A program made the position numbers and the translations under genes. From NCBI GenBank assembly GCA_003585845.1, contig NQOP01000001.1:24170-36679 (forward strand): a stretch of 12,510 nt of DNA, read 5' to 3'. The stretch comes from Bifidobacteriaceae bacterium NR021. GTDB lineage: Bacteria; Actinomycetota; Actinomycetes; Actinomycetales; Bifidobacteriaceae. Positions 1,425-12,510 of this stretch are shown one piece after another (the first letter of the stretch is position 1; every line of letters begins with the position of its first letter). Below the pieces are notes generated by a model. That model ran no database searches, was not told the origin of the DNA, and worked only from the letters and a program-made list of their open reading frames with translations.

Positions 1425-4400
1425 ATGCAGCGTCTCGTGAGGAGCATAGTGCCCAGAATAATAAGAGAACGCTTCAATGAATCTGAAGCTGAAAATAGTA
1501 GAACTGTGTCTAAAACTACTACTTCTGCGGAAATGTCCGGAACAATGCAATCTGCAGATTCTGCGGAAAGTAATGTAGCTGCTGGTGATACTTTGCAGCA
1601 AAGCTCTGGTGTTACGCGTCGCCGTCGCGGTCGACGAGTTACGCGTGGTGCCGGTGCTGCTGGAGAAGCAATGGAACTAAAAGTTGAGGATTCTAGTACG
1701 AAGAATTCTGAGCCGCATGTTGTTAAATCGCGCCCAATAACTTCGCTCCTATTCCAGGAGCCAGTTCTTCCTAAGGTAGTGAACGATCGTAGTGAAGAAA
1801 GCAGCGGTTCGCGCGACGGTTCGCGCGACGATTTGCGTGACGGTTTGAATGATGACTTGCGCGATGGCTTGAATGATGACTTGCGCGATATTTCTCGCGG
1901 AAGACGAGGTGGACGCAATAGTCGCGATAGCCGTGATTCTCGTGATAGTCGTGATTCTCGCGATAGTAGAGAGCGCAAGTCACGTTCTGAAAGACGCGAG
2001 AATTCAAGCGAAATGAAGCGTGATAGCGGCAGAGGGAATAGCCGTGAAACATCGCGTGAAACAAGTCGTTCTATGTATTCTCAAGATTCTGAGTACGCTA
2101 AGGATTTTCAGGATTCACAAGTTGATCGCGATGAAAAAACTCGCAAAAACCAGCGTTCTCGCCGTTCTCGCAGATTGAATGCTGTTGAGCGACGTGCTGC
2201 AGCTGAAGTTGAGCAAATTGAAGAAGATCTTGCATACGACGATATTGTTTACGCTCCTATTGATACGCGCATCGATGAAACTCCTGATGTTAGCGATATT
2301 TTATCTGCAGAAAATGCTTCGAATAGGCGTTCTAATCGTCGCAATCTGTCGAATAACATTTCTGATGATGATGACGCTCAAAATGAAAACGATGCAGTAG
2401 ACAGCAGAGGCGGTAGCAATAGCAGAGATAACAGGGATAGTCGCGATAGCAGTGACGAAAGCGATAACAGAAGCGCAAACGACGACTATAATGCAAATAA
2501 TGACAATGATGACGACGAAATAATGATTACGCGCCGCCGTCGCCGCCGCCGTAGCTCTCGCGCTGATCGCAACGAAAGCCGCAACGGAAGTCGCGATTTC
2601 GATATCGATATTTCAAATGATATTGACGATGACGCAAATTCTCGCACAAAACGCACAAGAATAGATGAAGTCTCTCAAGAAGATCGCGATTTAATTCCAG
2701 ATCCAGAAGAACTTCGTGAGCAAGATGAGGAAGAAACCCTTTATACGCGTCGCCGTCGTCGCCGTCGTTCTAAATCCTCCGATGACGCAAATTCCGCATC
2801 TTCTCAGGAAGAGTCGTCCGACTACACTAATGCAAACGAAGACGACTTAACTTCTCGCCGCTCGCGCAAGCAGCAGTATATAGACGAAATTACGGATATT
2901 GAAGGCTCTACGCGACTTGAAGCAAAGCGCCAACGCCGTAGAGATAATAGACGTGAGCGTAGCCGTCAGAACCTTCTTATGGAGCAAGATTTCCTTGCTC
3001 GTCGCGAAAATGTTGAACGATTAATGGTTGTTCGTGAGCGCGATCGCCACACGCAAATTTCCGTTATTGAAGACAATATTCTTGTAGAACACTACGTTTC
3101 TGATATTCAAGAAGTTGCTACTGTTGGAAATATTTATCTTGGGCGCATTCAAAACGTGCTTCCAAGTATGGAGGCGGCATTCGTAGATATTGGTCAAGCC
3201 AGGAATGGCGTGCTTTATGCAGGCGAAGTTAATTGGGATATGGCTCGTCTTGAAGGTCAGCCTCGTAGAATTGAGCTTGCGTTTAAGTCTGGCGATCCTG
3301 TGCTTGTGCAGGTTACTAAGGATCCAATTGGACATAAGGGTGCTCGATTGACTTCGCAAGTAACTCTTGCAGGGCGTTTCTTAGTGCTTGTGCCATCTGG
3401 CGGCATGACAGGTGTGAGCCGCAAGCTTTCGGATCGAGAGCGCTCGCGTTTGCGCGCTATTGTGTCGAAGATTGCACCAAAAGATATGGGCGTTATTATT
3501 CGTACTGCTGCTGACGGTGCAAGCGAGGAGTCGATTGAAAAAGACTTAGATTCGCTTGTTAAGCAGTGGGAGCGCATTGAAGCTAAGCGCGAAGAATACT
3601 TGCATGGAAAGCGTCCTAAGCTGTTACAGGGTGAGCCTGATGTGGCAATTCGTGTTGTGCGCGATATTTTCAACGATGACTTCCAAAAGCTTATTGTTGA
3701 AGGCGAGGGAGTGCGTCAGCGAATTGATGAATATCTTGAGATGATGGCTCCAGATTTGCGCAGCAAGGTTGAATATTGGGATCCTGCTGAGCATGAAGGC
3801 AAAGACGTTTTCGATAAGTGGCAGATTGATAGTCAGCTTCGTAAGGGCATGGAGCGTCAGGTTTATTTGCCGGCTGGCGGCTCTATTGTGATTGATCGTA
3901 CGGAAGCAATGACTACGATCGATGTGAATACTGGACGATTCATTGGTCGTGGTAAGTCTTTGGAAGAAACGGTTACTCGTTGTAATTTGGAGGCTTCTGA
4001 AGAGATTGCGCGCCAGCTTCGTTTGCGTGATATTGGTGGCATGGTCATGATCGATTATGTCGATATGGTTATGCCAGCGAACCGCGATTTGGTTTTGCGT
4101 AGGCTTTTGGAATGCTTGGCTAGGGATCGCACGAAGCATCAGGTTGCTGAAGTTACGTCTCTTGGTCTTGTGCAAATGACACGTAAACGCGTTGGCCAAG
4201 GCTTAGTTGAAGCGTTCTCTGAAGAGTGTCCAACGTGCAAGGGACGTGGATTTATTTTGCATGATGAGCCTACTGTTTCTTCGGAATATGCGGATCCTTA
4301 TGCGCTTAAGGGCGGAGATCCTTTTGTTAAAACAAACAAGTATGGTCATGGAAGTGCAACGGAGCAGCCTGCGCCTGTTAAGCAGCAGGGTTCTAGTGCG

Positions 4401-4778
4401 GAAGTGAGAGCTAAGTTAGCGCGTATAGCTGCCGCATCTGTAATTACTGACGCAGCTCATAAATCTGAAGAAGAAACGCAGTATAGCAATTTTTTGAATT
4501 CTGACAAAGAGTCTGTGTATTCTAAGGCAGATGAAACTGGCGAAGTTGCGGAAACTAGTGAGGCTGCGGAAACTAGTGAGGCGGATAAAACTTCTGAAGA
4601 ATTAGTTGAAAATAATTTAGAGGATACTACGCAAGAGATTGCTGAGTATACTTCGGAGCAACCTGCGCAAGATACTATGCAAGAAACTATGCAAGAAACT
4701 ATGCAAGAATCTGCGCAAGATACTGCGCAAGAACCTGCGCAAGAGACTGCAGAAAGTGATGATTTCGCCTCTGAATAG
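1425..4778 (+). CDS. rne: Ribonuclease E/G with long N- and C-terminal extensions
   Basis: This endoribonuclease, 1117 residues long, cuts single-stranded AU-rich RNA in mRNA decay and in rRNA/tRNA maturation. The catalytic part lies in the middle. An S1 RNA-binding domain starts near residue 550 (VGNIYLGRIQNV near 567). The DNase I-like active site has D833 in TIDVNTG and D877 in MIDYVDM, which match the metal-binding aspartates of E. coli RNase E. A zinc-link CPTC follows at 935-938. Residues 1-540 are low-complexity, rich in Arg, Asp, Ser and Glu, with several all-Arg runs, and are probably disordered and RNA-binding. Residues 970-1117 are acidic and repeat-rich. A catalytic core flanked on both sides is known from actinobacterial RNase E. 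The ATG at 1425 has GAGG two bases and AGGGA nine bases upstream; GTG at 1449, behind GAGGAG, is an alternative start. It is read toward the L21-L27 operon, which has its own promoter. Confidence 0.92.
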   Translation: MQRLVRSIVPRIIRERFNESEAENSRTVSKTTTSAEMSGTMQSADSAESNVAAGDTLQQSSGVTRRRRGRRVTRGAGAAGEAMELKVEDSSTKNSEPHVVKSRPITSLLFQEPVLPKVVNDRSEESSGSRDGSRDDLRDGLNDDLRDGLNDDLRDISRGRRGGRNSRDSRDSRDSRDSRDSRERKSRSERRENSSEMKRDSGRGNSRETSRETSRSMYSQDSEYAKDFQDSQVDRDEKTRKNQRSRRSRRLNAVERRAAAEVEQIEEDLAYDDIVYAPIDTRIDETPDVSDILSAENASNRRSNRRNLSNNISDDDDAQNENDAVDSRGGSNSRDNRDSRDSSDESDNRSANDDYNANNDNDDDEIMITRRRRRRRSSRADRNESRNGSRDFDIDISNDIDDDANSRTKRTRIDEVSQEDRDLIPDPEELREQDEEETLYTRRRRRRRSKSSDDANSASSQEESSDYTNANEDDLTSRRSRKQQYIDEITDIEGSTRLEAKRQRRRDNRRERSRQNLLMEQDFLARRENVERLMVVRERDRHTQISVIEDNILVEHYVSDIQEVATVGNIYLGRIQNVLPSMEAAFVDIGQARNGVLYAGEVNWDMARLEGQPRRIELAFKSGDPVLVQVTKDPIGHKGARLTSQVTLAGRFLVLVPSGGMTGVSRKLSDRERSRLRAIVSKIAPKDMGVIIRTAADGASEESIEKDLDSLVKQWERIEAKREEYLHGKRPKLLQGEPDVAIRVVRDIFNDDFQKLIVEGEGVRQRIDEYLEMMAPDLRSKVEYWDPAEHEGKDVFDKWQIDSQLRKGMERQVYLPAGGSIVIDRTEAMTTIDVNTGRFIGRGKSLEETVTRCNLEASEEIARQLRLRDIGGMVMIDYVDMVMPANRDLVLRRLLECLARDRTKHQVAEVTSLGLVQMTRKRVGQGLVEAFSEECPTCKGRGFILHDEPTVSSEYADPYALKGGDPFVKTNKYGHGSATEQPAPVKQQGSSAEVRAKLARIAAASVITDAAHKSEEETQYSNFLNSDKESVYSKADETGEVAETSEAAETSEADKTSEELVENNLEDTTQEIAEYTSEQPAQDTMQETMQETMQESAQDTAQEPAQETAESDDFASE
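1806..1889 (+). repeat. Seven 12-bp tandem units inside rne (N-terminal)
   Basis: Seven consecutive 12-bp units encode the four-residue blocks GSRD, GSRD, DLRD, GLND, DLRD, GLND and DLRD (residues 128-155). The last four form two 24-bp doublets with only one base different, suggesting recent duplication. Gain or loss of units keeps the frame. Confidence 0.85.
1920..1973 (+). repeat. Six 9-bp tandem units encoding Ser-Arg-Asp inside rne
   Basis: Six 9-bp units encode SRD five times and then SRE (residues 166-183). Codons alternate between AGT/AGC/TCT for Ser and CGC/CGT for Arg. This implies either old slippage followed by drift or selection for the peptide. The peptide resembles the RD/RS repeats common in disordered RNA-binding regions. 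Confidence 0.82.
4548..4583 (+). repeat. 18-bp tandem duplication in the rne C-terminal tail
   Basis: Two 18-bp units differ only at their last base and encode AETSEA twice. A third, diverged DKTSEE unit follows. It belongs to the acidic tail of RNase E. Confidence 0.8.
4665..4748 (+). repeat. Seven 12-bp tandem units at the rne 3' end
   Basis: Seven 12-bp units encode (A/M)Q(D/E)(T/S/P) blocks, residues 1081-1108, ten residues before the stop. Units two and three are identical at the DNA level. The low divergence suggests copy number may vary between strains. Confidence 0.87.
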
Positions 4779-10487: not shown

Positions 10488-10563
10488 AGGGATGTGGCGC
10501 AATTGGTAGCGCAACGGTCTCCAAAACCGTAGGTTGTGGGTTCGAGTCCCGCCGTCCCTGCCA
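10488..10563 (+). tRNA. tRNA-Trp (anticodon CCA)
   Basis: A full cloverleaf of 76 nt including the encoded CCA end (10561-10563). The acceptor stem AGGGATG (10488-10494) pairs with CGTCCCT (10553-10559) with one G-T pair. The anticodon stem ACGGT/ACCGT frames the loop CTCCAAA with anticodon CCA at 10521-10523. The T arm has GTGGG, TTCGAGT, CCCGC. The discriminator is G, as expected for bacterial tRNA-Trp. No terminator separates it from secE 36 nt downstream, so it is probably cut from a shared transcript, an arrangement common in actinobacteria. Confidence 0.97.
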
Positions 10564-10868: not shown

Positions 10869-11744
10869 ATGACTGATGAATTCAATCTCGAAGAAGCAAG
10901 TGAAGCTGATGAGGCTTTTGCTTCTCATGATGCTGACGAAGCAAACGAATCAGCTGTGAATGATGAAGCTGATGCTTCTAGCGAGTCTGTTGAAGCTGAT
11001 GTGGATGAGGAATCTGCTGATGTTGTAGCTGTTGTAGCTGATGGCGCTGCTGCTGACAGTGCTGTAGCTGACAGTGTTGCTGATGAAGCTGGCGATGCTG
11101 GCGAAACTAGCGAAGCTGACCCAACTGATGCCGGCGCAATCGCTGTAGCAGAATTTTCTAAGAAACTTCGCACTTTGGAAGGCAAGTGGTACGTTCTTCA
11201 CACGTATTCTGGTTACGAAAAGCGCGTGAAAACTAACGTTGAATCCCGCGTGCAGAACTTTGGTTTGGAAGATAAAATTTTCCAAATTGAAGTTCCTATG
11301 GAAGAAGTCGAGAAGCATACGGAAAAGGGTAAGAAGGTTATTACCCGCGTGCGTGTGCCAGGCTATGTATTGATTCGCATGTGGCCGGATGAGAACGCTC
11401 GCCGCATTGTGCGCGAGACCGAGGGCGTGACTGGTTTCGTTGGTCCTTCTAGAGAGCCTGCACCATTGAGCCGCAAGGAAGTTGTGGCAATGATGGCTCC
11501 TATGATCGCTTCCGAAGCTTTGAAGAATGCTGGCGATAAGCCGGCTGCAGCACGTAAGCGTAAGGTTGAGGTTGCTTACAAGGTTGGCGATCAGGTAACA
11601 GTTACAGATGGTCCATTCTCGACGATGGCTGCTGTGGTTTCGGATGTGGAGCCTACAACTCAGAAGCTTACAGTGTTGGTTTCCATCTTTGGTCGTGAAA
11701 CTCCTGTGGAGCTTGGATTTAACCAAGTGGAGCCGATTGTTTGA
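10869..11744 (+). CDS. nusG: Transcription termination/antitermination protein NusG
   Basis: NusG binds the RNA polymerase clamp, affects pausing and links it to Rho or the ribosome. The NGN domain starts at K106 ([15 protein letters not shown]) and includes [12 protein letters not shown] and GVTGFVGPS. The KOW domain spans 237-291 ([17 protein letters not shown] to the end). Residues 1-100 are an acidic Ala/Asp/Glu extension encoded by many GCTGA-type words. Such extensions are common in actinobacterial NusG, and the E. coli protein is only 181 residues. GAAGG ends ten bases before the ATG, a slightly long spacing. It is the last gene of the tRNA-Trp-secE-nusG unit and is followed by a terminator. 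Confidence 0.96.
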
Positions 11745-11800: not shown

Positions 11801-11832
11801 AAACCGGGGTGCGTATTGCACTCCGGTTTTTT
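11801..11832 (+). terminator. Intrinsic terminator after nusG
   Basis: AAACCGGGGTGC (11801-11812) pairs with 11818-11829 over 12 bp with one G-T pair and a GTATT loop, followed by a run of six T (11827-11832). A GTAGCTAG-containing short tandem (about 11763-11785) lies between the nusG stop and the hairpin. Confidence 0.93.
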
Positions 11833-11998: not shown

Positions 11999-12028
11999 TT
12001 GCAAATAGGCATGGGGGGGGGGTATAGT
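11999..12028 (+). promoter_or_regulatory. Promoter with a ten-G tract in its spacer, candidate phase-variable switch
   Basis: TTGCAA (11999-12004) and TATAGT (12023-12028) are separated by 18 bp, and the last ten bases of that spacer (12013-12022) are all G. Homopolymers of this length change size by slipped-strand mispairing, which would move the spacer around the 17-bp optimum and so raise or lower transcription. The -10 box is strong and no other good promoter is closer to the gene, apart from a weak TATGAT at 12134-12139. The 5' leader of about 130 nt contains two GAATTTTAGC copies (12061-12070 and 12073-12082). Confidence 0.65.
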
Positions 12029-12168
12029 GCTGAGTGTTTGAGAAGAGCGTTTTTAGCAGAGAATTTTAGCGAGAATTTTAGCAGAGTGTTTTGCAGGGAA
12101 TTCGAGTTTTTAGTGCCGTTGTAATAACGACATTATGATATAAGAGGGCGAATTAGGGGTAGGTGTAT

Positions 12169-12510
12169 ATGTTTAATTCGCATATATTTAGCCGTTTCCT
12201 TCGACTAGTGCGCTCAATTCGCCGTTCATTATTTGCTTTTTTCGTGGCGATTGCAATGTTGCTTGCTACATTTGTGATTGCTCCAACTTCTGCTTTAAGC
12301 GCTGGTGAGAATACTGGTGCTAATACTGCTTCTACTGAGAAGGCTGAGGGCGCGAAGGCTGGTTCTACTAAGAGTGATGTTGAGCAGCAGCAGCCTGATC
12401 AGAGTGAATCTAATAATAATACTGAGCCTAATAAGAAAGATACTGGCTCTTCTGATACTTTAAAGAATAATAATAAGGAATCGAAGTCTGTTGAAAAGCA
12501 GCAGAATGCT
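12169..12510 (+). CDS. Secreted low-complexity protein, N-terminal part (runs off the window)
   Basis: This frame is open for 114 codons to the end of the window. The first 20 residues are basic (SRFLRLVRSIRRS), followed by the hydrophobic core LFAFFVAIAMLLATFVI. A likely signal peptidase I site comes after APTSALSA, near residue 45. The exported part so far is polar and low-complexity, rich in Asn, Lys, Ser, Glu, Gln and Thr, with Asn runs and QQQ. That is typical of the linker at the start of a large cell-surface or cell-wall protein. AGGGG (12155-12159) lies nine bases before the ATG, and GTG at 12163 is an unlikely alternative start. No family can be assigned without the rest of the gene. 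Confidence 0.8.
   Translation, partial: MFNSHIFSRFLRLVRSIRRSLFAFFVAIAMLLATFVIAPTSALSAGENTGANTASTEKAEGAKAGSTKSDVEQQQPDQSESNNNTEPNKKDTGSSDTLKNNNKESKSVEKQQNA

What the first reader, a model, noticed from the sequence alone, without database searches (positions are those of the whole stretch)
11999..12510. Poly-G tract between -35 and -10 of a secreted-protein gene: likely phase-variable promoter
Ten consecutive G fill the end of an 18-bp promoter spacer and touch the -10 box TATAGT. The downstream gene encodes an exported protein, the class most often under phase variation. Spacer-length switching at homopolymers is established for Neisseria outer-membrane protein genes, and poly-G phase variation has been reported for bifidobacterial surface genes. 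Here a 9-G allele would give the optimal 17-bp spacer, so the sequenced allele may be a partly reduced state. The link to this protein is inference.
Basis: partly seen in the sequence, partly recalled or inferred. Interest (0 to 1): 0.82.

Follow-up and report, generated by a model that had tools for sequence, protein, structure and literature searches.

The report
Slippery-DNA promoter of Gardnerella pilus genes
A run of ten G letters sits inside the promoter of a pilus (surface fibre) operon in a Gardnerella vaginal bacterium, built like a copying-error switch that would let cells vary how much pilus they make.

Summary
Observation exact: G10 at 12013-12022 lies between TTGCAA (11999-12004) and TATAGT (12023-12028), spacer 18 = 8 + 10. 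The "secreted protein" is the tip subunit, first gene of a sortase-dependent pilus operon (tip, SpaH/EbpB-type pilin, class C sortase) in a Gardnerella near G. swidsinskii. In 12 Gardnerella-clade genomes I count 28 backbone-pilin loci; 25 have readable upstream DNA and all 25 carry a G tract 20-541 bp before the tip gene (23 intact, n = 8-13; 2 cut by a gap or contig end). TTG stands exactly 14 bases before the tract in 18 of 22 readable cases and 13 before in 3, so the spacer is 8+n or 7+n; 9 G gives 17 bp, the optimum published for B. breve. Near-identical paralogues in one genome differ in tract length, though assembly error at homopolymers cannot be excluded. Stops after the tract rule out the intragenic frame switch of B. 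breve pili. Phase-variable promoter: well supported by comparison, not shown directly (no reads, no transcript start). A new member of a known kind; its use at every readable pilus operon of this clade I did not find in print.

The parts
10869..11744 (+). nusG, the gene upstream
   Evidence: ORF; Pfam NusG 86 bits
11801..11829 (+). intrinsic-terminator-like hairpin between nusG and the tract
   Evidence: 1 found, 0.7 +/- 0.8 expected in shuffles, so weak alone
11999..12004 (+). -35-like TTGCAA
   Evidence: TTG at this offset from the tract in 18 of 22 readable pilus promoters
12005..12012 (+). constant 8-base part of the spacer
12013..12022 (+). G10 tract, variable part of the spacer (11 and 9 G in the orthologues of G031 and G045)
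12023..12028 (+). -10-like TATAGT touching the tract
12116..12145 (+). block conserved in the three nusG-locus orthologues just before the gene; role unknown
12163..12510 (+). start of the tip-pilin gene (GTG 12163 or ATG 12169), signal-peptide-like N-terminus; runs off the window
   Evidence: orthologue L015:2028-4340 is complete with LPNTG. In the window's own genome runs of N follow at once

Best explanation
The G tract is a slippage-prone part of the spacer of the sigma-70-type promoter that drives a sortase-dependent pilus operon. Replication slippage adds or removes G; each step changes the -35/-10 distance (8 + n) by one base and so the operon's transcription. About 9 G (17 bp) should be strongest, the sequenced 10-G allele (18 bp) somewhat weaker, and longer tracts weak or off. 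A clone would be a mixture of cells with graded pilus output. Shown here: anatomy, conservation, fixed flank geometry with variable G count, operon content in relatives. Inferred: that the promoter is used, that length changes in a growing clone, and that expression follows length.
For: 25 of 25 readable pilus operons in 12 genomes carry the tract before the tip gene; about 0.1 would be expected within 700 bp (212 tracts counted in about 19.3 Mb). TTG at 14 bases before the tract in 18 of 22 and at 13 in 3, whatever n is. Three species differ at the window's locus (10, 11, 9 G). Of 12 tract pairs with no gap in 160 flanking bases 7 differ in n, including same-genome pairs at 98-99% flank identity (pairs overlap). 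The tract keeps its place when the operon lies elsewhere in the chromosome. Among 42 sequence clusters of intergenic tracts in four genomes, TTG at -13 to -15 occurs in 11 of 26 with TA after the tract and in 0 of 16 without (p = 0.003). B. breve promoters have a 17-bp optimum (PMC5746004, passages). Another Gardnerella tract is 9 or 10 G in sibling colonies by Sanger sequencing (PMC11287997, section 11).
Against: No reads, no transcript start, no expression data. Homopolymer lengths in assemblies are error-prone, so some length differences may be technical. The promoter pair is unremarkable by consensus. One pilus promoter (G062 C9) has no TTG at the place, and 10 of 23 (10 of the 11 long-tip operons) lack the final T of the -10 box. 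TA after the tract also occurs in 5 of 9 in-ORF tracts, and 15 of the 26 TA clusters have no TTG at -13 to -15. In the window's own genome the pilin reading is cut by runs of N and one TAG is met inside the match, so it is open whether this copy is intact.
Confidence: 0.84

Rival explanations
1. The tract lies in the promoter spacer but is a fixed structural element (DNA shape or a protein-binding site); length differences are slow divergence between species, or sequencing error, and not a switch.
For: No within-clone variation could be measured here. Most tracts lie in a narrow range, 9-11 G in 19 of 23.
Against: Same-genome paralogues with 98-99% identical flanks differ in n; predicted spacers run from 16 to 21 bp, a poor fit to a fixed geometry; another Gardnerella tract is shown to vary between colonies (PMC11287997).
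Confidence: 0.09
2. Intragenic frame switch as in Bifidobacterium breve pili: the tract lies in an upstream ORF that must be in frame with the tip gene.
For: Published for B. breve with the same class of operon (PMC9187656), and seen here in other bifidobacteria.
Against: In 23 of 23 intact Gardnerella operons all three frames meet a stop within 160 nt after the tract, with the tip gene starting afresh beyond.
Confidence: 0.02
3. The operon is transcribed from another promoter, for example within or near the conserved block at 12116-12145, and the tract has no role.
For: That block, with TATGAT in it, is largely conserved in the three orthologues, while the DNA between it and the tract is full of indels.
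Against: No -35/-10 pair is called there. The tract layout recurs at pilus operons elsewhere in the chromosome with different surrounding DNA.
Confidence: 0.05

Closest known systems
Promoter-spacer repeat switches (Neisseria porA and opc, Bordetella fim, Haemophilus hif; details recalled, hif promoter indels also mentioned in PMC9187656)
   Same: A simple repeat in or at the core promoter whose length sets transcription of a surface structure
   Different: Different phylum; here the tract abuts the -10 box after a constant 8 bases and serves sortase-dependent pili; switching not yet shown
Intragenic G-tract pilus switch of Bifidobacterium breve UCC2003 (PMC9187656; abstract, sections 12 and 21, passages)
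   Same: Same family of bacteria, same operon class, G tract of 8-13
   Different: There the tract is inside the first gene and switches the reading frame; here it lies in the promoter spacer. That paper says in passing that other G tracts lie in promoter spacers of B. breve
Variable homopolymer tracts of Gardnerella (PMC11287997; section 11 and passages)
   Same: Same genus; about 70% of G/C tracts lie within 300 bp upstream of ORFs, often of surface proteins; one tract shown to vary between colonies
   Different: No promoter geometry or pilus operon in the parts I saw; 'spacer', 'pilin' and 'transcription start' do not occur in the main text
Slipped-strand mispairing in Gardnerella nanH3 (Kurukulasuriya 2021; seen only as a reference in PMC11868660)
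   Same: Repeat-mediated switching in Gardnerella
   Different: By its title, slippage within the gene of an enzyme; paper not read

Membership tests
Promoter-spacer simple-repeat phase variation | Homopolymer of 8 or more between -35 and -10 | tested here: met
Promoter-spacer simple-repeat phase variation | Tract length varies while the flanks stay | tested here: met
   Between species and between paralogues; assembly error not excluded
Promoter-spacer simple-repeat phase variation | Length varies reversibly within a clone | not testable with these tools
   No reads; shown for another Gardnerella tract (PMC11287997)
Promoter-spacer simple-repeat phase variation | Expression depends on tract length | not testable with these tools
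   No expression data
Intragenic G-tract pilus switch (B. breve type) | Tract inside an ORF that becomes continuous with the tip gene at some lengths | tested here: not met
   Stops in all three frames within 160 nt after the tract in 23 of 23
Sortase-dependent pilus operon | LPxTG backbone pilin, LPxTG tip subunit and class C sortase in one gene string | tested here: met
   G031 orthologue: pilin 388 bits (cut-off 95), sortase 262 bits (cut-off 160)
Sortase-dependent pilus operon | Same, intact, in the window's own genome | tested here: inconclusive
   Same gene order seen, but runs of N cut the genes and one TAG lies inside the pilin match

The most novel reading that the evidence does not exclude
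Gardnerella has put all its readable sortase pilus operons, and a wider set of surface-protein genes, under one promoter design (TTG-N8-Gn-TATA) in which slippage tunes transcription in graded steps. Its relatives switch the same kind of pilus operon by frameshift inside the gene, so one contingency function has moved between translation and transcription within one family of bacteria. With 2-4 independently slipping pilus operons per genome a clone would be a combinatorial mixture of pilus types.
Probability: 0.58. Interest if true: 0.66.

Novelty: new member of a known kind. Interest (0 to 1): 0.52.

Why it matters
Gardnerella adhesion and biofilm on the vaginal epithelium mark bacterial vaginosis. 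A slipping promoter at every readable pilus operon of the clade would explain cell-to-cell and culture-to-culture differences in surface fibres, and gives a plain measurement (tract length per colony) to test it. It also offers a natural comparison with bifidobacteria, where related operons switch by frameshift.

Tried and rejected
Judging the promoter by consensus alone: rejected, since the pair scores like chance sites. Using 'TA directly after the tract' as sole evidence: rejected as weak, because 5 of 9 tracts inside ORFs also have it. Intragenic frame switch: rejected for Gardnerella, recognised in other bifidobacteria.

An automatic operon walk in other bifidobacteria gave poor operon limits (6 of 40 without a sortase ORF, many single-gene operons). 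I replaced it by a plain listing of tracts within about 14 kb upstream of the class C sortase genes: 19 of 40 loci have a tract on the sortase strand (20 tracts), and at 10 of the 20 one frame stays open for more than 2 kb beyond the tract. Not every tract listed need belong to the operon. Two promoter-like tracts occur there too (L261, L263), so the contrast with Gardnerella is strong but not absolute.

Strain-level comparison: the named genome scan returned 2 loci, whose contig lengths equal those of G031 and G045 already in hand, so no further alleles. The strict pattern with exactly 9 G found 3 of 189 family genomes, one in another genus; too strict to be informative.

Rows dropped: of 81 tracts listed for four genomes, 8 were left out because their 40 upstream bases were identical to one already counted, leaving 73. 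Three of 28 pilus loci had no readable upstream DNA (G000 C2b, G014 C17, G092 C1a). Tracts preceded by N are not in the count. An earlier count said 17 of 22 for TTG at -14; recounting one search gives 18.

'Not found in print' rests, in an open-access library only.

Full report
Observation. The window ends with nusG, an intergenic stretch and the start of an exported-looking protein. G10 lies at 12013-12022, touching TATAGT (12023-12028); TTGCAA at 11999-12004 gives an 18-base spacer made of 8 bases plus 10 G. No other G8 run exists in the window, and shuffles give 0.01. The hexamer pair by itself is no better than chance sites in the region, so the case rests on comparison.

What the gene is. 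The window is G000 C4:24170-36679. Beyond the window its genome reads, through runs of N, an LPxTG tip protein, LPxTG pilin pieces and the start of a sortase-like gene; one TAG is met inside the pilin match, so this copy's integrity is open. In G031, whose nusG region is 93% identical, the string is complete: a 771-aa tip protein with LPNTG, a 644-aa SpaH/EbpB-family major pilin (388 bits, cut-off 95) and a class C sortase (262 bits, cut-off 160). The tip protein has no Pfam or NCBIfam hit. Of 382 relatives 120 are listed; those that bear a name are Gardnerella or Bifidobacteriaceae proteins, nearly all 'hypothetical', one 'LPXTG-motif protein'. The named genome scan gave Gardnerella swidsinskii GS 9838-1 and Bifidobacteriaceae bacterium NR047, whose contig lengths equal those of G031 and G045. 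So the finding concerns a pilus operon in a Gardnerella close to G. swidsinskii. GTDB files Gardnerella under Bifidobacterium (my knowledge).

The tract goes with pilus operons. I took as the Gardnerella clade the 12 genomes with the best nusG-region matches, all of 1.5-1.8 Mb. A backbone-pilin search gives 28 loci there when its rows are merged. Upstream DNA is readable for 25. In 23 an intact tract stands before the tip gene (n = 8 once, 9 six times, 10 five, 11 eight, 12 twice, 13 once). In the other two it is cut: at G022 by a 100-N gap with G9 on either side, at G060 by contig ends lying in the tract, whose adjacency is inferred. The operons lie after nusG in G000, G031, G045, G022 and (inferred) G060, and elsewhere in the other genomes, so the tract goes with the operon and not with the neighbourhood. 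By chance about 0.1 of 25 genes would have a coding-strand tract within 700 bp (212 tracts in about 19.3 Mb).

Geometry. In 18 of 22 readable promoters TTG starts exactly 14 bases before the tract, in 3 it starts 13 before, in one (G062 C9) it is missing; one more has N there. The spacer is thus 8+n or 7+n: 16 bp once, 17 six times, 18 six, 19 six, 20 once, 21 once (counted). After the tract 13 of 23 have TANNNT; the other ten, all of them long-tip operons (10 of 11 such), have TATAAA, TATAAC, TACAAA, TACAAC or TAGAAC, which lack the last T. B. breve promoters have TTGACA/TATAAT with an optimum of 17 bp, spacer length ranking second for expression (PMC5746004, passages).

A wider class. In four genomes (G009, G031, G064, G069) I read 73 distinct tracts (of 81; 8 dropped for identical upstream bases), 64 intergenic and 9 in ORFs. 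TA follows the tract in 46 of 64 intergenic but also in 5 of 9 in-ORF tracts, a caution. The -35 signal is cleaner: among 42 sequence clusters of intergenic tracts TTG at -13 to -15 occurs in 11 of 26 with TA after the tract and in 0 of 16 without (p = 0.003); five other offset ranges gave p of 0.28 or more. Fifteen of the 26 have no such TTG. Genes after promoter-like tracts include a family of exported proteins beginning MMNKKAIAAFAAGATLLAG and large proteins beginning MTTKS. The motif G8TATANT was present in 12 of 12 Gardnerella-clade genomes and 1 of 100 others of the GTDB genus; 19 places against 1 for the control.

Instability. Of 32 tract pairs with at least 80% flank identity 20 differ in G count; of the 12 pairs with no gap in 160 flanking bases 7 differ, among them pairs inside one genome (G009: 10 vs 9 G at 98-99% flank identity, 11 vs 13 G at 98%). 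Pairs overlap and are not independent, and homopolymer lengths in assemblies can be wrong. At the window's locus three orthologues have 10, 11 and 9 G. Published work shows a 9/10 difference between sibling Gardnerella colonies at another tract, by Sanger sequencing (PMC11287997, section 11).

Not a frame switch. In B. breve two pilus clusters depend on slippage at an intragenic G tract, and tracts are listed for four more species (PMC9187656; abstract, sections 12 and 21, passages). In the Gardnerella operons every frame meets a stop within 160 nt after the tract (23 of 23). In other bifidobacteria I find the intragenic form: upstream of 40 class C sortase genes (40 of the 42 best hits), 19 loci hold a tract on the sortase strand, and at 10 of their 20 tracts one frame runs open for more than 2 kb beyond it; four related loci show an upstream frame of about 205 nt with n = 8, 8, 9 and 11, of which only n = 11 continues into the long frame. 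Two promoter-like tracts also occur there.

Mechanism. Most likely slippage in the tract changes the spacer and so pilus transcription, in graded steps around 17 bp. Shown: anatomy, conservation, variation between relatives and paralogues, operon content. Inferred: that this promoter is used, that length changes in a growing clone, that expression follows length. A terminator-like hairpin after nusG (11801-11829) fits an operon that needs its own promoter. A conserved block at 12116-12145 is unexplained.

Novelty. Spacer-length switching, intragenic pilus G tracts in bifidobacteria and upstream homopolymers in Gardnerella are each known. The fixed promoter geometry at every readable Gardnerella pilus operon I did not find in seven literature searches (open-access library only). 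I rate it a new member of a known kind, of moderate interest.

Noticed in passing
window 12116-12145: A block (GTTGTAATAACGACATTATGATATAAG) conserved in three species just before the tip gene, while the DNA between it and the tract is full of indels; operator or second promoter not decided.
   Followed up: partly
L149-L222, e.g. L187:702, L151, L153, L169, L180, L199, L202, L217: A repeated promoter, TTGACT-N9-G9..11-TATGTTAATA, stands before several paralogous exported proteins (MMNKKAIAAFAAGATLLAG...) in each of four Gardnerella genomes; copies in one genome differ in G count.
   Followed up: partly
G000 contigs C1 and C4 (L025, L040, L042, L044, L045): 5 of 11 G8+ tracts in the window's genome directly adjoin a run of about 800 N; whether these are assembly gaps caused by the tracts cannot be told.
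   Followed up: no
L226-L229: Four related pilus loci of other bifidobacteria carry an in-gene G tract of 9, 11, 8 and 8; only the 11-G copy is in frame with a frame of about 8 kb.
   Followed up: partly
G113:C6:16772-16800: A genome of another genus of the family carries the same layout, TTGACC-N8-G9-TATATT; the gene downstream was not looked at.
   Followed up: no
window 1425-4778: RNase E/G family gene with a long low-complexity N-terminal half rich in SRD repeats; tRNA-Trp lies at 10488-10563.
   Followed up: no
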